From: Panorpa germanica
Taxonomy: Eukaryota > Arthropoda > Insecta > Mecoptera > Panorpidae
DNA length: 64,000 nucleotides
Direction of reading: 5' to 3'
Assembly: GCA_963678705.1 (NCBI GenBank)
Contig: OY783222.1
Coordinates: forward strand, 2,480,001 to 2,544,000
How positions within the stretch are numbered: the first letter of the stretch is position 1; each line of letters starts with the position of its first letter. The position numbers and the translations under genes were made by a program. Under the pieces are notes generated by a model, which was given only the letters and a program-made list of their open reading frames with translations, had not been told where the DNA came from and made no database searches. Below are positions 4,246-64,000 of the stretch, piece after piece.

Positions 4246-4529
4246 ATCGAGAACAATAAAATTTCAATATTATGTCTGCCGTAACAGGGTTAACTTGATT
4301 ATTTACCACATTACCATAGCACTGACCTATTCAACAAATAACTGACGTATAATATGCATTTCACGTCATACAAATGGCCGACCATCTCTAGCGCTTAAAC
4401 TACAATTCAAATTTTTAATTGGTATATCTCCGTCAACATTTAGATATTTAATAAAATAGACACGCCAATACACATTTATTAACATCAATTTTCAAATCAA
4501 CCCCTAAAAAATGAGGATACAAGCGCATT
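4246..4529 (+). repeat. MITE family A, 3' half fragment
   Basis: This matches the second half of the family A element at 41,668-42,258, from the ACAATAAAATTTCAAT block to the terminal repeat, here GAGGATACAAGCGCATT. The first half is missing. Confidence 0.8.
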
Positions 4530-9579: not shown

Positions 9580-9584
9580 AGTGT

Positions 9585-9892
9585 TGTACGAAATAAAACC
9601 ATGCGAGTATTTGTAGATTGAATAATTATTCAATTGTTTAATGATAAAATAATTTTACACTTTTTAATTACTTTGAACCAACATTCTTATAATAACAAGA
9701 TGGTTGGGAATTATGATCTTGACAGTGTAGAAGCCCAAAACACAACTGACCTGATTGCCATACGGCCGTGTCGTACACAGCAGTCATCGTATTGCTGTCA
9801 TGCGCATTACTTCTATTAGAGACAACAATGTATTATAATGTTGGAATGCCAACAGAGACATCTTATGTTCTGTGCTAATTTTGTACTGAACA
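9585..9892 (-). repeat. BEL/Pao 3' LTR
   Basis: 308 bp, starting TG and ending CA. On the coding strand it carries a TCAGTT initiator-like site (9,744-9,749) and an ATTAAA signal near the U3-R-U5 end. Short frames in it are chance. It matches the 5' LTR base for base as far as I can read. Confidence 0.92.
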
Positions 9893-10047
9893 TAAATTGC
9901 CAGCCAGCAGAAGTAGATAAGCTCACAACCAATATCAAATTATACAATGTTACATAAAATTATTATAAACCAATTTACAAAAAATAATGTGAACTTCTTA
10001 AAACTATTATAAACAAAATTACACAAAATAACATAAACTTCTTAACT

Positions 10048-11730
10048 CTATGGTAGTCTACATAATTTTGTGAAAATAATATAAAACAAATTAATTACTA
10101 TCCTAAATATAACAGAAACCATAATTATCAATGTAGCATACATTATCATTTGCATAATGTACACAACAATCATCAACTCAATAGTTACAATGTTATTGAA
10201 ACAATTATCTTTTAACAATTCCAACAGTACAGATGTTTGTTTTACATCAATGTTGTAAACATTGCAATTAATATCTGATGGAAGTATTGTATTTGAATCA
10301 AAAATTTTATTTGTTGCTTGTTTGATTCGCACCAGCAACACTGCGCTAATAATCTCAAGCTGGGGTATTGTAAGTACCTTACTTGATGGAGCTACACTGG
10401 ACTTGTAGCAAATTAAATTTGTTTTTATTTTAATATTTATAAAAATAATATTGTGTTTTAAACCTAATGTCATAATACTGGTTGATCTGTTTAATAATGT
10501 TTTATAAACCTCCAATAATGAAGGATTGTGTCTAAATCTTTTTTCCAACACATTAAATCTTTGCGGGGCAACTGAGAAAGAATCCTCCAATTCTATTTTA
10601 TTTACTAGGCTGAGTAATGGCAAATCAACAGTTAAATTATTTTTAAGTGCTACTGAATTTTGAAAATTATGTTCAGCCTTTAAGTAATCCTCAGAAAACT
10701 TATCTGATTCCTCTGGGACTTTCTCAGTTGTCCAAGATTGTTCCATAACATTCTCAAGGTTAGTATATTCACAAATAGCAAGATTACATACAATATTATT
10801 ATGTGAATACTTATTTTGATTATACAATTTTCTTGGAACCACATTTCCTTTATTATTATTGTCATGTGACATATTTTTATAATCTAAACTATACTCAATT
10901 GCAATTGCACGTCTTTCTAAAAATGAAATAAATTCTGCCATAGTAGGCAGTTCTTCTAAATTTCTTTCCATGTGGAAAGTGCGGTTAGTAACGATATCTA
11001 ATTTTCTACTTAAGGCCGAGATTAAAATCATATCCCACTTGTCTACAGGCTCATCAAGATTTTTTAACGCTTGTAATTGCTGTTTTACTTGACATAAAAA
11101 AGCCCTTATATCGACTGCAGTACCTTTCTGCATGTTGGGAATATCAAGTATTATATTAATGTGATAAAAGATTAATCTCGCCTTATTTTCATACCGCGCT
11201 AACAATAAATCAATAGCCTCTTTGTATGAGCTGTTCACAAGCGGCAGATTTATAATTATTGAGAGAGCCTCATCAACGAGATACTTTCTCAAATAAAAAA
11301 GTCTTTGAACATCGGACAATGATGCATTATTGTGAACCACTGCTTGGAAGAGCTCATAAAAGGGCTTAAACCTGGTTATATCCTTGCCATCGAAGGTTGG
11401 AATTTCCACCGCTGGGAGCTTCAATGGAACTAATTCAGGCCTATTAACTTCTTTTAACTTATTGATGCTAGCATTTAATTTTGCAATAATGTTAAAATAC
11501 TTCTCTTCAACTTCTTCAATGTCTTCCTCATCTTGATCATCAATTTCTAAAATGCTGTACTGCGTGAGCTCGTACGATTGGAATGTAGTCATCATCTTTT
11601 CTTTTTTCACCTGCAGCACCTCCACTGTAGCGGAGTCGAGAGCCCTTGGGTCGCTGACGTAATTTTCCATCCGTGATATTGCACTTTTTGCAGCCGTCCG
11701 CGCCGATCTAAGCCTTTTCAATCCCTCCAT
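10048..11730 (-). CDS. Chimeric Gag-Pol ORF of the BEL/Pao derivative
   Basis: 560 codons, starting at ATG 11,730. Residues about 105-275 carry the BEL/Pao Gag domain (DUF1759): LPAVEIPTFDGKD, a helical middle, and the end motif FISFLERRAIAIE. Residues about 60-80 are acidic and probably coiled. From about 325 the sequence resembles the Pol linker between protease and reverse transcriptase (APQRFNVLEKRF, then a leucine-rich segment). At about 451-469, KVLTIPQLEIISAVLLVRI is the segment after the reverse transcriptase, at the start of the RNase H-like/A17-associated region. Gag zinc knuckles, the protease active site, the RT catalytic box and the whole integrase are absent, removed by at least two deletions, yet the frame stays open. 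The C-terminus (about 515-560) is hydrophobic and probably out of the original frame. Expected product: a Gag able to enter particles made by a complete relative. Confidence 0.88.
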   Translation of the reverse strand: MEGLKRLRSARTAAKSAISRMENYVSDPRALDSATVEVLQVKKEKMMTTFQSYELTQYSILEIDDQDEEDIEEVEEKYFNIIAKLNASINKLKEVNRPELVPLKLPAVEIPTFDGKDITRFKPFYELFQAVVHNNASLSDVQRLFYLRKYLVDEALSIIINLPLVNSSYKEAIDLLLARYENKARLIFYHINIILDIPNMQKGTAVDIRAFLCQVKQQLQALKNLDEPVDKWDMILISALSRKLDIVTNRTFHMERNLEELPTMAEFISFLERRAIAIEYSLDYKNMSHDNNNKGNVVPRKLYNQNKYSHNNIVCNLAICEYTNLENVMEQSWTTEKVPEESDKFSEDYLKAEHNFQNSVALKNNLTVDLPLLSLVNKIELEDSFSVAPQRFNVLEKRFRHNPSLLEVYKTLLNRSTSIMTLGLKHNIIFINIKIKTNLICYKSSVAPSSKVLTIPQLEIISAVLLVRIKQATNKIFDSNTILPSDINCNVYNIDVKQTSVLLELLKDNCFNNIVTIELMIVVYIMQMIMYATLIIMVSVIFRIVINLFYIIFTKLCRLP

Positions 11731-12398
11731 CTTGCTTAGGTGATAGATTCGTACTTATATGATAGATGAAACGTGGATGACAAACTAATCCAGGTTAATC
11801 CAGCAACATGAGAAGTTTTTAATAGATTGGTACTTGCAGATAGTAATAATAACTTTGTACCTTCATGAGTAAAGAAGTATTTTACTGTCCTCCAGCATCC
11901 ATGTATCCTCTTCCGTAATGAATAATTTTTCTTAAAATATAAACGTGTAGTAATCCAAATTATATGCGAATCCGCTTAAATCAAACGTTGCATTACCCAA
12001 TCAATGGCAATTGATGACTTGCCAGGCCGCCATAGGGTAAATGTAACAAAATAGCTTGCACTTGTGCTGGTTACTATACAGATGTAACCTCAAAACACCA
12101 CGAAATCACACGCGGGTACCAATGGCTTGTAAGGCCAGTTTTTTTTTTTTTGTAGGATTTAAAACCTTCTTGAAATGTAATTGTAAAATATCCAGCTTCG
12201 CTTGTAAGGCTTCTGGAAATGTAATTGTAAAATATCCAAATCCTCCGTGAATCCGCCAAAATAGAGCGTCCCATTTACCCAATCAATGGCAATCGCCAAG
12301 GGGCAAATGTAATAAAACGCCAAAAATACAATGAAAAACACACGCGGTTAATAAACTCGAAGGATCGGCTTTGTAAGACTCGAAGGACCAGCTTCGCA
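11731..12398 (-). other. BEL/Pao 5' leader with internal duplications
   Basis: Untranslated leader between the 5' LTR and the Gag start. A 23-bp unit starting GAAATGTAATTGTAAAATAT occurs at 12,172-12,194 and 12,216-12,238. A longer, diverged duplication built around CCCAATCAATGGCAAT occurs near 11,995 and 12,278. Such leaders usually hold the packaging and dimerisation signals, so the duplications may matter for mobilisation in trans. That role is inference. Confidence 0.7.
12379..12390 (-). promoter_or_regulatory. Primer binding site, tRNA-Tyr type
   Basis: On the minus strand, TGGTCCTTCGAG lies 8 nt inside the 5' LTR. It is complementary to CUCGAAGGACCA, the 3' end with CCA expected of insect tRNA-Tyr, which I recall ending CUCGAAGGA before CCA. 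A decayed duplicate (CTCGAAGGATCG on plus) lies 23 bp further in, at 12,356-12,367. Confidence 0.75.
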
Positions 12399-12706
12399 TG
12401 TACGAAATAAAACCATGCGAGTATTTGTAGATTGAATAATTATTCAATTGTTTAATGATAAAATAATTTTACACTTTTTAATTACTTTGAACCAACATTC
12501 TTATAATAACAAGATGGTTGGGAATTATGATCTTGACAGTGTAGAAGCCCAAAACACAACTGACCTGATTGCCATACGGCCGTGTCGTACACAGCAGTCA
12601 TCGTATTGCTGTCATGCGCATTACTTCTATTAGAGACAACAATGTATTATAATGTTGGAATGCCAACAGAGACATCTTATGTTCTGTGCTAATTTTGTAC
12701 TGAACA
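12399..12706 (-). repeat. BEL/Pao 5' LTR
   Basis: 308 bp, TG...CA, matching the 3' LTR. Transcription would start in it and run leftward. The same TCAGTT site falls at 12,558-12,563. Confidence 0.92.
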
Positions 12707-12711
12707 AGTGT

Positions 12712-18582: not shown

Positions 18583-19198
18583 AAATTCTATAAAATTGTC
18601 CTATATATTGATAAAGTATGTTACTAGAACCTCAAATGTTCAATTATTTGTTAATAACTCCTTATATGGATATTAACAATTTAAAAAGTCATTTTATCTC
18701 TTTAATTTTTAAGGGATTCAACGTTGTACAACATTCCAAATGCATGTGACATCACAGTTGCTTAATTATATTCTTGACAGAACTCTGACAAGTTTACAGG
18801 TTATCAACCTTACAGCTCATAAATCTCTGCTATATGTATTTATATATCAAAATATCAAATATTATTTACAGCTATTTCAAGGAACAATCAAATTTCAATA
18901 TTATGTCTGCCGTAACAGGGTTAAATAAAATAAAAACTTATTCTTTGATTTGACTTGATTATTTGACTACCAACAGCTACAGAACATTACCACAGCACTG
19001 ACCTACTCAATAAATAACTAACGTTAAAATGCATTTCACGTCATACAAATATGGCCGACCATTTCTAGCGCTAAAACTACAATTCAAATTTTTAATTGCT
19101 ATATCTCCGTCAACATTTAGATATTTATTAAAATAAAAACGCCATTTATTAACATCAATTTCAATCAAAAATTGAAGAATCGACCACTAAAAAAGGAG
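18583..19198 (+). repeat. MITE family A copy without terminal repeats
   Basis: About 615 bp collinear with 41,668-42,258 (CTATAAAA..., GATTCAACGTTGTAC, TAGCGCTAAAACTAC, ATATCTCCGTCAACATTTAG). Both GGGCTTGTGTCC ends are eroded, so this is an old copy. Confidence 0.8.
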
Positions 19199-36916: not shown

Positions 36917-37313
36917 AAGGTGAAACGATACTTGACCATTTTTTCTCGCGAAATATAGATTTTCTAATTTTTATACTCTATATATTTTTAAGTCTTAAGC
37001 GTAAGTTTGAGAACCATAATAAAGGTTATAAAATTTATGACAAACCCTTAGAAATGTTACCAGTCATATAAAAATTGAAATTTAACTAGAAAATATAGCA
37101 ATATTCATTTTCAAAACTTATTTTTGCGGTTCCAACTCATTCAAAGTCAGTGGAAGAAAGCTTAAAATGTAGATACGTTATTCATCTAACTAATTGCAGC
37201 TTTAGATTTTGATTCGCGTTTATAGTTACTTACATAAAACGATTTAAACATAAAAAAACGTGGTTTTTTTGATAATATTTAACCTGCTGTTTAGTATCGC
37301 CATCTATATTTCC
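36917..37313 (+). repeat. Repeat family C (long-arm element), copy 1
   Basis: Starts AAGGTGAAACGATACTTGAC. The right part, from TTTGCGGTTCCAACTCATT to GCCATCTATATTTC, is one arm of the element at 53,095-53,686. The left arm is mostly deleted, leaving only the tip. Confidence 0.8.
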
Positions 37314-41667: not shown

Positions 41668-42258
41668 AATGGGCTTGTGTCCTATGTATTAATTTCTATA
41701 AAAGTGTACTATATATTAATAAAGTGGGTTACTAGAACCTCAAATGTACAATTATTTTTTAATAACGCCTTATATATTAGGAGATATTAACAATTAAAAA
41801 AGTCATTTTGTCTCTTTAATTATTAAAGGGATTCAACGTTGTACACATTCCAAATGCATGTGACATCACAACCTTACAGCTCATAAATTTATATATCAAA
41901 ATATCAAATATCATTTACAACTATTTCGAGGAACAATAAAATTTCAATGTTATGTTTGTCGTAACAGGGTTAAATAAAATGAAAACTTATTATTCTTTGA
42001 CTTGACTTGATATTTCGACTACCATCAGCTACAAGCACTGACCTACTCAACAAGTAACTGACGTTAAAAGTCATTCACGTCATACAAAAATGGCCGGCCA
42101 TTTCTAGCGCTAAAACTACAATTCAAATTTTTAATTGCTATATCTCCGTCAACATTTAGATATTTAATAAAATAGACACGCCAATACACATTTATTAACA
42201 TCAATTTCAATCAACAATTGAAAAATCGGCCAATAAAAAATGAGGACACAAGCCCATT
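41668..42258 (+). repeat. MITE family A, full-length copy (591 bp)
   Basis: Reference copy. AATGGGCTTGTGTCCTATG at the left is mirrored by TGAGGACACAAGCCCATT at the right, an inverted repeat of about 16 bp. No ORF of note. I could not see a direct target duplication. Confidence 0.88.
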
Positions 42259-45665: not shown

Positions 45666-46413
45666 TAAATATAATTCTACTATCTATTGTATCTCAAAGA
45701 TATTTATACGGGTTATGTACATATTTTTTCTTATATCCTCAGGAATGTCGCAACAAGTAGTAAATCAAACGTATAACATCAAAACACGCATATTGAAATA
45801 AATTCCTAAAATTCATAACATTTTTTCATAACATACAAAATGTACGCATAACGCAGTCAAACAAAACGAACCATAATATTTGTTGAACCTTTATTAAAAC
45901 AATCAGCTAATTTTAAAGTAAAAACCAACCATGTTTTATTTGCTATGTTTGACATTAATTCCCTATTGTCTGCACCATATTTCCTGTGACAACCCTGCTT
46001 TGTTCACCTAGGGGTGCATTGTCACGTAGCGCAGGAACCCTGTGTTTAATGTTACGGTGGTGGTTTTTGGTTAGAACAGGGGTGTACTAAATATGAATCA
46101 GTAAATAATACATATTGTAGAAGGAACATGAAAATCTTATCCTTTATTCTTTTACTTTTATTATATTCAGTTAATTTAAATTAATAATATTTCAGAAGTT
46201 GTGCTGAAGGGAGATTAATAGCTTTATTAGGACACTGCAAGCGTATTTAAGCGAATTTTGATCGGACACTGCAAACGACAAAGCCATCCGAATTCTATAG
46301 CTATACATCACATATTGTCTTCCCTGTGCTTCTTGTTTCTTTCAAATTTTAATTAGTTCCTCATTGATTTCGTTAATAATTTGCTCATTTGATAACATTT
46401 TCCGACATTTAAT
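45666..46413. other. AT-rich stretch without a gene
   Basis: Nothing recognised. Ends at the target duplication of the next element. Confidence 0.5.
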
Positions 46414-46426
46414 TAGTAAATTATAA

Positions 46427-48128
46427 CGGACGAGGGACTTTAGACAATATATACGCACTGAACCATTTAGTTGAAAAAGAGCTAAGTGAAAAAGGAGGAC
46501 AGATATATGCAATGTTCATCGACCTTAAAGCGGCGTTTGACATGGTCGACAGACAGAAATTGTGGAAGTACATGAGAAAGAAAAAAATAGATGAGGACAT
46601 AATGAAATGTATTGAAGAAATTTACGAAGAAACAAGAATGAGAATAAGAGTTGGGGGTGAAGAATCAGAAGAATTCTGGACAGACAAGGGGTTGAGGCAA
46701 GGTTGTCCTCTGAGCCCCATTTTATTTGCGATATATACAGCAGACTTGGAGGGGGTAATGGAAAGAGGACAAGACGGGGGGGTGCTAATAGGAAGGCACT
46801 ACAAGATATGGACTTTAGCATACGCTGACGATATAGTCCTGTTGGCAAAAAGGGAAGGAGAGCTGCAGGAGATGGCACACCGGCTAGGGAGGTATATAGA
46901 CAGGAAAGGACTAGAGTTAAACGTGGAAAAGACAAAAATTATGGTATTTAAAAAAGGGGGTGGAAAAAGGAGACTTAAAAGGTGGAAATACAAGACAGAG
47001 GACATTGAGGAAGTTGAAGAATTTAAATATCTGGGCTACACTTTTAAAAAGAATAATGGAGAAGAGGCGCATATAAGGGAGGTGGCAAAGAAGGCAGAGC
47101 AAGCAATGCGACGGGTATGGGGACTAGGGGAAAAGGTATTTGGGGGGGACATACAAAAGAGAATATGGATATACGAGAGACTGATAGCCAGTATGATGTC
47201 GTATGGAGCAGAGGTTTGGGGGTGGAAGGAACAAGAAAAGTTGGAAAGAATACAGGTAAGATATATGAAATGGGTTCTAGGGCTGGACAGGTGCACGCCA
47301 GGATACATGGTGATGGAGGAGCTAAAGAGGGACAAGATACGAATTAAAACAGGGGAAAGAGCGGTAAAATACGAGGAGAAATTGAACAGAGCGGAAAGCA
47401 AAATCTTAAAGAAAATAAGAGAGGATTACATAAAGAATGGGGGGAAAGGAGGTCCAAAAAAGAGAAAAGAATACTTTGAAAGGAATGGAATGGCGATCGA
47501 GGAGGCAGAGAGGAGAAGAGAAGGTGGCGCAAGTGTGGCAGAGGAGCTAAGGAGAAGGGATAAGGAGACACAACAGCAGGAGAGAATGGGAAAAATAGAA
47601 AAAAGTAACTACAATAAAAGATATAAGAGGTTATGGGAAAATAATGTGCCTCAGTACCTTATAGAAAAGGACATAAAACACATAAGAAGAACAGCAAGGT
47701 TTAGATTGGGAAATGAGGAAAAAGGAAACAGATATTGGGAAAAGAGTGAGGAAAGAAAGTGTAGAATGTGTGGAGCGGAGGACGAAACACTGGAGCACAT
47801 TAAGTTTGAGTGTAAGGAAAAAGTAGCAAGCGAAAGGAATATTGGACAGCTATTAAAGGGAGGCAGTGAAGGAAAGAGGTGGATGGCGGAAATAGTAAGA
47901 AGAAAAGGAAAAACAGGAGAATAAATAATCTGGTGGAGAATAATAGAGAGGGTCAAAAGAAGAAGAAGCAGAAAGCACTTTTGGAAGTAGTAAAAGTCGA
48001 GAAGATTTTAAGTTTATTTTAAGTTTAGTTTTTAAGTTTGGAATGTATATAGGAATGAAATGTATTAGAAATATAATACTGTAGATTGTAAAGCCGAAAG
48101 GCATACACAATTAATATATAAATAAAAA
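46427..48128 (+). mobile_element. Young 5'-truncated non-LTR retrotransposon
   Basis: 1,702 bp flanked by a perfect 13-bp direct repeat TAGTAAATTATAA (46,414-46,426 and 48,129-48,141). It begins inside the reverse-transcriptase domain and has an open ORF, a 204-bp 3' untranslated part with TGTAGATTGTAAAGCCGAAA, and a short A/T-rich tail. Clean borders and an intact frame point to a recent insertion by target-primed reverse transcription. The endonuclease and first RT motifs are missing, so it cannot move by itself. Confidence 0.95.
46428..47924 (+). CDS. Reverse transcriptase ORF2, 5'-truncated
   Basis: 499 codons remain open from the truncation. The first in-frame ATG that gives a long product is at 46,512 (470 residues). 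The pre-ATG part already reads RT (GRGTLDNIYALNHLV). Numbering from that Met: FIDLKAAFD at 2-10 (first catalytic Asp), LRQGCPLSPILF at 61-72, YADD at 104-107 (catalytic pair), GLELNVEKTKIMVF at 133-146, EFKYLGY at 170-176. A long basic helical connector follows, then a C-terminal zinc knuckle C417-x2-C420-x8-H429-x4-C434. The layout fits the jockey/I/R1 group. It would copy element RNA at a nicked target, but the apurinic-type endonuclease is gone. It is a fragment of a transposon, not a host gene. Confidence 0.93.
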   Translation, partial: GRGTLDNIYALNHLVEKELSEKGGQIYAMFIDLKAAFDMVDRQKLWKYMRKKKIDEDIMKCIEEIYEETRMRIRVGGEESEEFWTDKGLRQGCPLSPILFAIYTADLEGVMERGQDGGVLIGRHYKIWTLAYADDIVLLAKREGELQEMAHRLGRYIDRKGLELNVEKTKIMVFKKGGGKRRLKRWKYKTEDIEEVEEFKYLGYTFKKNNGEEAHIREVAKKAEQAMRRVWGLGEKVFGGDIQKRIWIYERLIASMMSYGAEVWGWKEQEKLERIQVRYMKWVLGLDRCTPGYMVMEELKRDKIRIKTGERAVKYEEKLNRAESKILKKIREDYIKNGGKGGPKKRKEYFERNGMAIEEAERRREGGASVAEELRRRDKETQQQERMGKIEKSNYNKRYKRLWENNVPQYLIEKDIKHIRRTARFRLGNEEKGNRYWEKSEERKCRMCGAEDETLEHIKFECKEKVASERNIGQLLKGGSEGKRWMAEIVRRKGKTGE

Positions 48129-53094: not shown

Positions 53095-53686
53095 CCCATT
53101 TTTGATTCGCGAAATATAGATGGCGATACTATACAGCAGGTTAAATATTATCAAAAAAATCATGTCTTTTTATGTTTAAATCGTTTTATGCAAGTAACGA
53201 TAAACGCGAATCAAAATCTAAAGCTGCAATTAGTTAGATGAATAACGTATCTACATTTTAAGCTTTCTTGCACTGACTTTTAATGAGTTGGAACCGCAAA
53301 AATAACTTTTGAAAATGAATATTGCTATATTTTCTAGTTTTCCCATTTTTATATGACTGGTAACATTTCTAAAACTTATAAATCTTGTAACCTTTATTAT
53401 GGTTCTCAAACTTATGCTTAAGACTTAAAAATATATATAGTATAAAAATATAATTAATTTTCAAAAGTTATTTTTGCGGTTCTAACTCATTAAAAGTCAG
53501 TGGAAGAAAGCTTAAAATGTAGATACGTAATTCATCTAACTAATTGCAGCTTTAGATTTTGATTAGCGTTTATAGTTACTTACATAAAACGATTTAAACA
53601 TGATTTTTTTGATAATATTTAACCTGCTGTATAGTATCGCCATCTATATTTCACTAGAAAAAATGACCAAGTATCGTTTTACCTTA
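53095..53686 (+). repeat. Repeat family C, full copy with long inverted arms
   Basis: About 590 bp. The left arm (GAAATATAGATGGCGATACT to about 53,330) is the inverted copy of the right arm (about 53,463 to 53,655), so nearly 200 bp can pair, with a loop of about 130 bp. The right tip reads ATACTTGGTCATTTTTTC when inverted, matching the tip at 36,917. No ORF. Foldback-type non-autonomous transposon. Confidence 0.82.
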
Positions 53687-54832
53687 AATAAAGAAAAGTA
53701 ATAGAGGTTCTACTTTGTTTTTGTCATTTATTTCGTGCTGGATGCTGTCAGTGACAATCCGACGTCAATAATATTGAAATACCATATATTTTAATGTTTG
53801 AAAATTTCTATATAAATAATAAATTTGATATGAAAAACATACAATTGACTAATATATGTTTCCTGGTATAAACACATCCCAATTATATTTCTAGAATGAA
53901 ATATACTATTTATGCCAAAAATATAATATATTCAAGGAAAACATCCCCTAAATATTTCATATTTGTGGTATGGTACATTACACAAGGATAACTCAAATAA
54001 TCTCGATGAAATACCCCTAAATAAAATACTATTATAGGGTGGTATACAACACAACACATTCATATCAATTTCTATTTATAAATATGTACTCCAATACAAG
54101 GGAACCACAGCCCTCCCACATTGTTATTGATTCATGTATGCTAAATATGTAACATGCTCTTGTATGGGGATGATATTATATGTATTGCACCCCTGTGGAT
54201 TCTTCGATTCGGGGATTCATTTAAACCCTTCATTATTAAATTTAAATTTATGTGCTTTATTATGAGCACAGTGTAAAATATTGTTAATCCATCATGAGTG
54301 GAACTAAAGGTAAACATAGCAGTATTTATTTCATAGATGTCTCTCGACACTACTGCCTAGTTTTAAAGTTTAACACAGGAGAGGCGAATATGAACTTCGC
54401 TGCTTATAAAACTCATGATAAATACATACTAATTCAAAACAGAACCACAAACAATTTATGAGCGCCCCACGAGCAGTTACATTGACATTTTTCCACAATT
54501 AAAGTGCGCTTTGTCGTGGATTGCGTTGAATTCTGGTCTTCATGTTTGGAACCATTTCTGGCGATGTTCCTGCTTTTAGAAATCCACCTCTATTGCGTTT
54601 ATTGATGCTACCAGTATCATTGTCACGTGTAATAGTTCGATACATAAACATTTTGTTCACATGTAACTTCTCTTAAGTGCGACGTAAAACTATATGCTTT
54701 TGTAGGCTTGTAAACAACATACCAGATTGACGCTCGTCAAAAAATGAGCGAGTTGTCATTAGCTGTTTGGTTGCTACTGCAGCTTGAAATTGATAATACA
54801 TCGAGCGTCCTGTATTTCTCTGTTAGTTTATT
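53687..54832. other. AT-rich stretch without a gene
   Basis: A 69-codon minus frame (54,141-54,350) is unsupported. Confidence 0.45.
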
Positions 54833-55422
54833 AATGGGCTTGTGCCCTATGTCTTAATTTCTATAAAAGTGTACTACATATTGATAAAGTGGGTTACTAG
54901 AACTTCAAATGTTCAATTATTTTTTAATAACTTCTTATATGTTAAGAGATATTAACAATTAAAAAAGTTATTTTGTCTCTTTAATATTAAAGGGATTCAA
55001 CGTTGTACATATTCCAAATGCATGTGACATCACAACCGCTGCCAACCTTACAGCTCATAAATCTCTGGTATATGTATTTAAATATCAAAATATCAAATAT
55101 TATTTACAGCTATATTTTAAGGAAGAATAAATTTTCAATATTATCTGCCGTAACAGGGTTAAATAAAATAAAAACTTATTATTTTTTGACTGGATTTGAT
55201 TATTTCGACTACCAACAGCTACGAAACATTACAACAGCACTGACCTACTCAACAAATACCTGACGTTAAAATGCATTTCACGTCATACAAATATGGCTAA
55301 AACTACAATTCAAATTTTTAATTGCTATATCTCCGTCAACATTTAGATATTTAATAAAATAAACACATTTAATAACATCAATTGAAAAATCGACCACTAA
55401 AGAATGAGGACACAAGCCCATT
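54833..55422 (+). repeat. MITE family A, full-length copy (590 bp)
   Basis: Ends AATGGGCTTGTGCCCTATG and TGAGGACACAAGCCCATT. Collinear with 41,668-42,258, with a few indels. The 86-codon frame across its middle is not a gene. Confidence 0.87.
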
Positions 55423-62358: not shown

Positions 62359-62983
62359 AATGGGCTTGTATCTTAATTTTTAGTGGTCGATTTTTCAATT
62401 GTTGATTGAAATTGATGTTAATAAATGTGTATTGGCGTGTCTATTTTATTAAATATCTAAATATTGACGGAGATATAGCAATTAACAATTTGAATTGTAG
62501 TTTTAGCGCTAGAAATGGTCGGCCATATTTGTATGACGTGAAATGCATTTTAACGACAGTTATTTGGTGAGTAGGTCAGTGCTGTGGTAATGTTTTGTAG
62601 CTGTTGGTAGTCGAAATAATCAAGTCAAGTCAAAGAATAATAAGTTTTTATTTTATTTAACCCTGCTAAGGCAGACATAATATTGAAATTTCATTGTTCC
62701 TTGAAATAGCTGTAAATAATATTTGATATTTTGATATTGTATAAATACATATTCAATTGTGTATACATGTATAATACAATTGTGATGTCACGTGCACTTG
62801 GAATGTGTACAACGTTGAATCCCTTTAATAGTTAAAGAGACAAAATTACTTTTTTAATTGTTAATATGTCTTAACATATAAGGAGTTATTAAAAAATAAT
62901 TGAACATTTGAGGTTCTAGTAACCAACTTTATCAATATATAGTACACTTTTATAGAAATTAAGAGATAGGACACAAGCCTATT
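62359..62983 (-). repeat. MITE family A, full-length copy (625 bp)
   Basis: Starts AATGGGCTTGTATC and ends GGACACAAGCCTATT on plus. The interior is inverse to the copies at 41,668 and 54,833. It sits in the intron of the gene that starts at 61.0 kb. Confidence 0.87.
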
Positions 62984-64000
62984 ATACATGAAACTACTGC
63001 TTTCGGGTTCGATTCTTTGTTTTCTAGGTTATGAGTTTGAATTTTATTACTTTCATTTGATTGAGTCTATATGAATGAGGATAATAAAACTACAAGGATA
63101 TTAAATCAATACTTCCGGTAATTAAAAAACGTAAATTTCTTATTAAATTTTATGTAATATTTATTACCTAACACTATCTTTTTATTATTTACCATAGCTT
63201 AACATAATTCTATCAAATTGTCATTAAATAAATGCAATGAACGTTAAAAATCTTGTACTAATATATTAATTTAATACGTAACGGTATATAACCTTGCATA
63301 AAACGTTTTATTAACATCACAAAATGTAATTTTATGTCAAAAGGTAATTTTTATATTATCTATACCAATTTTTTATATTAAATAAACCTTATTTATTAAT
63401 TATTGCCATTAAATAGCTATTATCTGTGCTATCTATTCTATTTCTACCTATTAAGGCAAATTATTGGTAGCCTATTCTATTTCTATTTTAAAGCTACCAA
63501 TAATTTGCCAATTTAGTTTTAATCGCTCCAACTTGCAAACAGCTGCGTTTAAAAGGGTATGGAACACCCTTCGAGTAATTTTTAAACAATACAATTAATC
63601 AAAGAGCACCCTGTTAGATAGAATTCTTCTTCCCACCGCGTACTTCAACATTACAACAGTTTCCCAAATAGAGTTTTTCCTGTTTTCAGATTTTCCCTAT
63701 TTCAGATTTCTTTCTTGTGTTTCTCGGTTTTTTTTTTGGCTGTGTTTTATTATTTAGGGATGATTTATTTGTTGGTTTATTCTTGTCATAACATTACTGT
63801 TTCCTCTCACTCGTCACCCCATACCTAGTTCACCCCCTACTCTGTGTGTATATTACGAAGGGTTTTTCGTTTCGAATGTCGGCTTGGATTTATTGTTTTG
63901 TATGTGATATGATGGAAGTAGCAAATGTTATTGAATAATAAATTAAAATGTTTTATTCTTGCATGTTGCTTTGTTACTTTGAGAGATAGAAATATGCGTT
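62984..64000 (+). other. Intron of the 61.0-kb gene, part 2
   Basis: No exon found. Contains the 16-bp inverted repeat listed next. AT-rich to the window end. Confidence 0.5.
63455..63509. repeat. Perfect 16-bp inverted repeat
   Basis: GGCAAATTATTGGTAG and CTACCAATAATTTGCC are separated by 23 bp. Either a strong hairpin or the two ends of a very small foldback element. Confidence 0.85.

What the first reader, a model, noticed from the sequence alone, without database searches (positions are those of the whole stretch)
9585..12706. Recent, internally deleted BEL/Pao element with all cis signals kept
The two 308-bp LTRs read as identical, with a 5-bp AGTGT duplication and a primer binding site. 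Protease core, RT and integrase are gone. The deletion therefore probably came before insertion, and the element was moved by enzymes in trans. This is a non-autonomous BEL/Pao lineage, comparable in logic to known LARD/TRIM-type elements but with a Gag still encoded.
Basis: partly seen in the sequence, partly recalled or inferred. Interest (0 to 1): 0.7.

Follow-up and report, generated by a model that had tools for sequence, protein, structure and literature searches.

The report
Gag-keeping non-autonomous BEL/Pao retrotransposon family
A stripped-down jumping gene in an unnamed, probably insect, genome has lost its copying enzymes but kept a capsid-type gene that looks protected by selection, and many near-identical young copies suggest that it spreads by borrowing enzymes from related elements.

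Summary
In detail: identical 308-bp LTRs, an AGTGT duplication, a tRNA-Tyr primer site, and one 560-aa minus-strand frame with Gag (DUF1759) but no protease, reverse transcriptase or integrase found. The window's genome (464 Mb) lists at least 95 copies. Of 20 chosen by LTR alone, 19 have their own 5-bp duplication, 19 have no LTR difference, and 19 keep the frame. So the deletions predate the insertions and this is a non-autonomous family. Gag looks selected (10 amino-acid, 17 silent changes; omega about 0.2); the pol remnants are less so (15, 7; not significant). Corrections: three joins, not two; 'all cis signals kept' is too strong (primer site short and offset, no ordinary polypurine tract); TR-GAG is a better comparison than LARD/TRIM. 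No parent was found: Gag of sampled full-length BEL/Pao elements is 26-31% identical, but that search was partial. The genome also holds a second, unrelated Gag-Pro BEL/Pao family; two copies read show no RT. The kind is known; the variant is new as far as my searches reach.

The parts
9580..9584 (.). target site duplication AGTGT, copy beside the 3' LTR
9585..9892 (-). 3' LTR, 308 bp, TG...CA
   Evidence: identical to the other LTR
9893..9907 (-). edge before the 3' LTR where a polypurine tract would lie; 7 of 15 purines; the same motif, apart from two C/T positions, in 20 of 20 and 28 of 28 copies
10048..11730 (-). single open frame, 560 aa
   Evidence: kept in 19 of 20 LTR-selected copies
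10855..11730 (-). Gag part, aa 1-292, with signs of purifying selection
10975..11394 (-). DUF1759 domain, aa 113-252
   Evidence: E 1.4e-27
10489..10785 (-). linker that precedes RT in a full-length BEL/Pao element, aa 316-414
   Evidence: 34.3 bits to L090; 100 shuffles reach at most 25.0; a tblastn of the same segment had listed nothing
10303..10434 (-). C-terminal remnant of Peptidase_A17 (Pfam name), aa 433-476
   Evidence: E 2.1e-6; 38-53% identity to 18 sampled domains
11731..12398 (-). 5' leader, with internal repeats and variable length between copies
12379..12390 (-). primer binding site, 12 nt match to tRNA-Tyr
12399..12706 (-). 5' LTR, 308 bp
12707..12711 (.). target site duplication AGTGT, second copy

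Best explanation
This is one young insertion of a non-autonomous BEL/Pao retrotransposon family. Shown: the internal deletions are shared by the copies read and so predate the insertions; those copies are young; the Gag part of the one frame changes far less in amino acids than silently, while the leftover pol pieces do so less clearly. Inferred: the RNA is made from its LTR, primed by tRNA-Tyr, reverse-transcribed and integrated by RT and integrase from full-length BEL/Pao elements in the same genome. Also inferred: the element's own capsid-type Gag matters to its own spread, probably by joining or shaping the mixed particles that carry its RNA.
For: Twenty LTR pairs 2.81-3.02 kb apart, start to start. 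In the 20 copies: 19 perfect 5-bp duplications, 19 with zero LTR differences (one with 1), 20 with the same primer site core and 3' edge, 19 with the frame from the same start. A protein search scored 78 of 2655 candidates; all 78 cover residues 1-560 at 99-100% without stops (a best-match list, so biased to intact frames). Leader: 14 distinct gap runs; frame: 4, of which 3 are multiples of three. Gag 10 N / 17 S, omega 0.16-0.23, p 4e-6 to 2e-4; pol remnants 15 N / 7 S, omega 0.59-0.85, not significant; Fisher 0.045 (19 copies, L025 dropped as frame-broken). Candidate helpers: 150 of 1684 Peptidase_A17 candidates scored, 39 of the 150 rows (hand count) in open frames of 1614-1767 aa. Four of 6 sampled helper pieces hold the same tRNA-Tyr primer site core. 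A 562-aa single-Gag TR-GAG element was seen to transpose in Arabidopsis (PMC8704663, passages).
Against: No parent or specific helper was identified, and no RNA or protein data exist here. The selection test rests on 27 and 22 changes. By mean pairwise ratio the pol remnants are also below 1 (0.45 for columns 305-573, 0.31 for 417-573, against 0.16 for Gag; no test of these was made), so some constraint there is not excluded. 14 of the 17 silent Gag changes fall in the 140 DUF1759 codons, as would also happen if a patch had been imported by recombination from a diverged intact relative, in which case the constraint could be that relative's. The Gag lacks a CCHC motif and a protease, so it may not work alone. 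The plus-strand primer site is unclear.
Confidence: 0.75

Rival explanations
1. A non-autonomous family moved wholly in trans, whose Gag is a passive leftover; the apparent constraint comes from recombination with, or recent descent from, intact elements.
For: The 20 copies are 98.2-100% identical; silent changes cluster in DUF1759; two LTR types about 6% apart go with nearly the same internal region, so recombination seems to occur; the pol remnants also show mean pairwise ratios below 1.
Against: The pol remnants, which would share any recent descent, show less constraint than Gag (Fisher 0.045). 19 of 20 frames are intact while the leader carries many gaps. No close intact relative was seen in the pieces sampled.
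Confidence: 0.3
2. One-off deletion after insertion of a full-length element.
For: Nothing beyond what the single window shows.
Against: At least 95 listed copies with the same frame or LTR pair spacing, 48 of them read whole, at different sites and nearly all with their own duplications.
Confidence: 0.01
3. Copies spread by segmental duplication or assembly duplication, not retrotransposition.
For: High identity of copies.
Against: Own 5-bp duplications in 19 of 20 and 27 of 28 copies, on many different contigs.
Confidence: 0.02
4. The truncated Gag acts mainly as a trans-dominant inhibitor of helper elements, like Ty1 p22, and is kept for that.
For: Capsid-type Gag without CCHC motif or protease; Ty1 p22 inhibits assembly (PMC4599808, listing with start of abstract).
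Against: The family has many young copies, and an inhibitor of its own helper should not be favoured at element level. Its Gag is only 26-31% identical to the Gags found in sampled full-length elements.
Confidence: 0.08

Closest known systems
TR-GAG elements (plants), e.g. AT5TE33540 of ATCOPIA63 (PMC8704663, passages read)
   Same: Two LTRs, a single frame for Gag (562 aa there, 560 here), no pol; TR-GAG movement has been seen.
   Different: Copia superfamily in a plant with a similar, potentially autonomous element recognised; here BEL/Pao, probably insect, no parent found, and the frame carries two pol remnants.
Bel-21_AG of Anopheles gambiae (PMC3212995, section 11 read)
   Same: Non-autonomous BEL/Pao family in an insect, short (3803 nt), identical LTRs, one long frame.
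   Different: Its 927-aa frame has no recognised domain, dN and dS did not differ, three sequences, primer for asparagine, and a polypurine signal was called.
Wheat RLG_Sabrina_SA and RLG_WHAM 'semi-autonomous' elements (PMC9744471, passages read)
   Same: Abundant LTR elements that encode Gag but no RT or integrase and are thought to be served by an autonomous partner.
   Different: Gypsy elements that keep the protease; the second family in this genome (L091, L092) is the nearer match to them.
Cattle ERVK[2-1-LTR] D-type, mouse ETn (PMC10924933, passages read)
   Same: Elements with a replaced or lost centre that are moved in trans and keep parts of gag; in cattle the D-type outnumbers the competent type.
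   Different: No intact frame in the cattle D-type; retroviral, with recognised competent partners.
Achilles of the olive fruit fly (PMC4580426, passages read)
   Same: BEL/Pao with a tRNA-Tyr primer site near the LTR.
   Different: RT is present; the word non-autonomous does not occur in its main text.
PbTRIM of the harvester ant (PMC3532108, passages read)
   Same: Insect non-autonomous LTR family with no autonomous partner found.
   Different: Very short, non-coding, tRNA-Leu primer, 4-bp duplications, polypurine tract of about 15 nt.

Membership tests
BEL/Pao superfamily | BEL/Pao-type Gag and pol domains (DUF1759, Peptidase_A17) | tested here: met
   linker before RT also matches a full-length element of the same genome
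BEL/Pao superfamily | RT phylogeny within BEL/Pao | not testable with these tools
   no RT found
BEL/Pao superfamily | 5-bp target duplication, TG...CA LTRs (recalled as typical) | tested here: met
   two full-length BEL/Pao elements here also show 5-bp duplications
Non-autonomous LTR retrotransposon family | Many copies sharing the same internal deletion at independent sites | tested here: met
Non-autonomous LTR retrotransposon family | Autonomous partner sharing LTRs | tested here: inconclusive
   18 of 150 listed A17 domains and six 5' pieces sampled, none close; the DUF1759 list (150 of 2254, all at 118 bits or more) cannot show a parent scoring about 97 bits
TR-GAG (Gag-only LTR element) | LTRs plus a single intact Gag frame, no functional pol | tested here: met
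   the frame also carries two pol remnants
TR-GAG (Gag-only LTR element) | PBS and PPT present (defining list recalled) | tested here: inconclusive
   PBS met; no ordinary PPT; full-length families here have short purine runs, longer than this element's
LARD | Large, non-coding internal region (recalled) | tested here: not met
   internal region 2506 bp with a 560-aa frame
TRIM | Very short element without coding capacity | tested here: not met
   3122 bp with a conserved frame

The most novel reading that the evidence does not exclude
In this genome, RT-less BEL/Pao elements with their own Gag have arisen at least twice and both lineages amplified to many copies. In the one studied, Gag is kept by selection acting on the element itself: a cis-acting capsid that marks or packages its own RNA while the enzymes come from distant BEL/Pao helpers with Gags only about 30% identical. 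That would be a Gag-owning parasite lineage that is old in sequence though young in copies.
Probability: 0.35. Interest if true: 0.75.

Novelty: new variant of a known kind. Interest (0 to 1): 0.58.

Why it matters
Whether a defective retrotransposon's own Gag helps it, or is only luggage, is an open question for Gag-only elements. Here a natural family of many young copies, an internal control (the less constrained pol remnants) and full-length candidate helpers lie in one assembly, so the question can be tested by counting substitutions, genotyping insertions and sequencing particle RNA. It also suggests that Gag-keeping, RT-less BEL/Pao elements can become numerous in an animal genome.

Tried and rejected
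Relatives in phages, viral contigs and genome contigs gave no BEL/Pao element that I could recognise. The one file of these loci searched (L001.fa, which may or may not hold L002 and L003 too) gave nothing below E 9; L002 and L003 were not examined otherwise. No solved structure matched. The AlphaFold2 single-sequence model has mean pLDDT 39.6 and was not used for a fold search. No Rfam match in the window and no tRNA gene. I considered a missing polypurine tract as a special mark of this element and mostly dropped it: two full-length BEL/Pao families in the same genome show runs of only 4-5 purines ending 3 nt before the 3' LTR. A third, whose LTR start I did not settle, shows a run of 7 ending 3 nt before a TG. 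The deleted element's own edge is weaker still. I could not date the deletions: the A17 remnant is too diverged from sampled families. A tblastn of the middle segment against two helper pieces listed nothing at E 0.01; blastp on the proper frame then found it in L090 (E 1.6e-6), while L089 matches it only weakly (E 0.02 with the whole frame, nothing in place with the segment alone). Rows dropped: L025 from the dN/dS set (frame broken); L035 from the LTR and duplication count (one LTR partial); alignment columns 293-304 from both dN/dS segments. My note says more than 100 copies for the second family; the recount is 93 of 150 rows.

Full report
What is there. The element runs from 9585 to 12706 on the minus strand. 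Its two 308-bp LTRs are identical, start with TG and end with CA, and are flanked by AGTGT. [quoted passage not shown] the tRNA identity rests on a human TyrGTA fragment printed in PMC7698123 (passage). A BEL/Pao family of the olive fly, Achilles, also has a tRNA-Tyr primer site (PMC4580426, passages). A 668-nt leader with internal repeats precedes a single 560-aa frame.

What the frame encodes. Pfam finds DUF1759 (aa 113-252) and the last part of Peptidase_A17 (aa 433-476, profile positions 105-148 of 162) and nothing else. Nine chosen minus-strand pieces gave no retroelement domain. There is no CCHC, D[ST]G or [YF]xDD motif. Between the two domains, aa 316-414 match the linker before the RT of a full-length BEL/Pao element in the same genome (L090; 34.3 bits, against at most 25.0 in 100 shuffles; the match in L089 is weak, E 0.02 with the whole frame) (a first tblastn listed nothing). 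So the frame is Gag, join, pre-RT linker, join, A17 remnant, join, hydrophobic tail. Protease, RT, about the first two thirds of A17, and integrase are not found. That is three joins, not two.

Other copies. The window lies in an assembly of 464 Mb in 249 contigs. An LTR search scored 40 of 1114 candidates; these are 20 elements with LTRs 2813-3018 bp apart, start to start. I read all 20, the window included. Nineteen of 20 have a perfect 5-bp duplication, 19 of 20 have no LTR difference and one has a single difference, all 20 share the primer site core and, apart from two C/T positions, the edge before the 3' LTR, and 19 of 20 keep a frame of 560-573 aa from the same start. A protein search scored 78 of 2655 candidates, all 78 full length without stops. 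Three of these 78 are in the first set, so at least 95 distinct elements were listed (20 + 78 - 3, counted by hand). Of loci L032-L060, 28 of 29 could be measured: 27 have a perfect duplication and 24 identical LTRs, with a second LTR type of 309 bp, 93-94% identical to the first. So 48 copies were read whole. Both lists hold best matches only, so the share of young, intact copies in the whole family is overstated.

Age. Over the 20 pairs there is 1 LTR difference in 6160 bp, over the 28 pairs 4 in 8652 bp. These insertions are young. The lineage need not be: its A17 remnant is only 38-53% identical to 18 sampled domains of 150 listed. Its Gag is 26-31% identical to Gag in five of six sampled full-length or long-frame families, with no match in the sixth piece and no DNA similarity beyond a 15-base match at E 0.01.

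Selection. On the 19 frame-intact, LTR-selected copies, counting each codon variant once, Gag (aa 1-292) has 10 amino-acid and 17 silent changes (omega 0.16-0.23 for transition weights 1-4, p 4e-6 to 2e-4). The pol remnants (columns 305-573) have 15 and 7 (omega 0.59-0.85, not significant); the two differ at p = 0.045. Mean pairwise ratios are 0.16 for Gag, 0.45 for columns 305-573 and 0.31 for 417-573 alone, so some constraint on the remnants is not excluded. The leader has 14 distinct gap runs, the frame 4, three of them multiples of three. This suggests that the Gag part does something that matters for the copies that spread. The main caveat is that 14 of the 17 silent changes lie in DUF1759, so an imported patch from a diverged relative is not excluded.

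Cis signals. The title claim 'all cis signals kept' is too strong. The primer site matches 12 nt (11 in the copies with the other variant) and is 8 nt from the LTR, whereas three full-length families have an 18-nt match 0-3 nt from theirs and a fourth holds the core. The 15 bases before the 3' LTR hold 7 purines. Yet the same edge stands in 20 of 20 and 28 of 28 copies, so it must serve as a boundary for plus-strand synthesis. Two full-length families in the same genome have runs of only 4-5 purines ending 3 nt before the 3' LTR, and a third probably one of 7. So short tracts look like a habit of these BEL/Pao elements, and this element's is the weakest of those seen.

Helpers and parent. The genome has many BEL/Pao elements with long open frames: of 1684 A17 candidates 150 were scored, all above cut-off, and 39 of these rows (hand count) have frames of 1614-1767 aa. 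They can supply RT and integrase. No parent sharing these LTRs was found, but the search was partial: the second LTR query and the junction pattern did not complete, and the DUF1759 listing (150 of 2254, all at 118 bits or more) cannot show a parent that scores like this element at about 97 bits.

A second family. Of the 150 rows of the DUF1759 listing, 93 (hand count) have frames of 831-861 aa, mostly at 118.8 bits. Two copies read (L091, L092) have DUF1759-type Gag similarity and a CCHC and a D[ST]G motif; for L092 Pfam also gives DUF1759 and an aspartyl protease (RVP, 4.2e-7). Neither shows an RT or A17 match in the 5.3-5.5 kb fetched, and their Gag is 33% identical to this element's. LTR ends were not settled for them. 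Two rows of similar score have 1652-aa frames and may be full-length relatives (not examined). So Gag-keeping, RT-less BEL/Pao families seem to have arisen at least twice here. Which of the two families is larger cannot be told from capped lists.

Comparison with what is known. Gag-only LTR elements are known in plants as TR-GAG, and one with a 562-aa Gag was seen to move (PMC8704663, passages). Gag-Pro 'semi-autonomous' elements are known in wheat (PMC9744471, passages). A non-autonomous BEL/Pao family, Bel-21_AG, is known in a mosquito, with a frame lacking known domains and no sign of selection (PMC3212995, section 11). In cattle, defective elements outnumber their helpers (PMC10924933, passages). 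The listings, and the passages that I opened, show no Gag-encoding, selected, non-autonomous BEL/Pao element; the library lacks most subscription papers. I therefore call it a new variant of a known kind.

Mechanism. Most likely the element's RNA is packaged in particles built at least partly from its own capsid-type Gag, with nucleocapsid, protease, RT and integrase from other BEL/Pao elements, primed by tRNA-Tyr and integrated with 5-bp duplications. Shown: the shared deletions, youth, duplications, frame conservation and the Gag-against-remnant contrast. Inferred: mixed particles, the identity of the helper and any cis preference.

Noticed in passing
G000, e.g. L091 1319-3823 and L092 1149-3695: Second BEL/Pao family with many copies (93 of 150 listed rows with frames of 831-861 aa) encoding Gag, one CCHC and, in L092, a retroviral-type protease, but no RT or A17 in the fetched stretch; two rows with 1652-aa frames may be full-length relatives.
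   Followed up: partly
L032-L060 against L012-L030: Two LTR types about 6% apart go with nearly the same internal region, which suggests recombination between subfamilies.
   Followed up: partly
window 12356-12390: A second primer-site-like CCTTCGAG lies 23 nt downstream of the primer site.
   Followed up: no
window 12431-12448 and the same place in the other LTR: An 18-bp perfect palindrome in the LTR.
   Followed up: no
window 10051-10302, minus strand: The last 84 residues of the 560-aa frame hold a strongly hydrophobic, membrane-segment-like stretch (19-residue mean up to 2.6), in a part that chance would rarely leave open (1 of 4000 shuffles).
   Followed up: no
window 4308-4529, 18583-19198, 41668-42258, 54832-55422, 62359-62984: A dispersed repeat of up to about 600 bp in five places, about 82-92% identical.
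   Followed up: no
window 53111-53652 and 36967-37312: A self-inverted (palindromic) repeat with a related copy, MITE-like.
   Followed up: no
window 46413-47924: Non-LTR-type reverse transcriptase frame (RVT_1, 7.6e-30, matched from profile position 47); parts of its region recur at 1340-1491 and 1929-2087.
   Followed up: no
G000:C1:10151890-10181972 and G000:C2:13299748-13347207: Regularly spaced BEL/Pao hits (14.8 kb apart on C1; about 5 kb apart in part of C2) that look like local duplication of element-bearing units.
   Followed up: no
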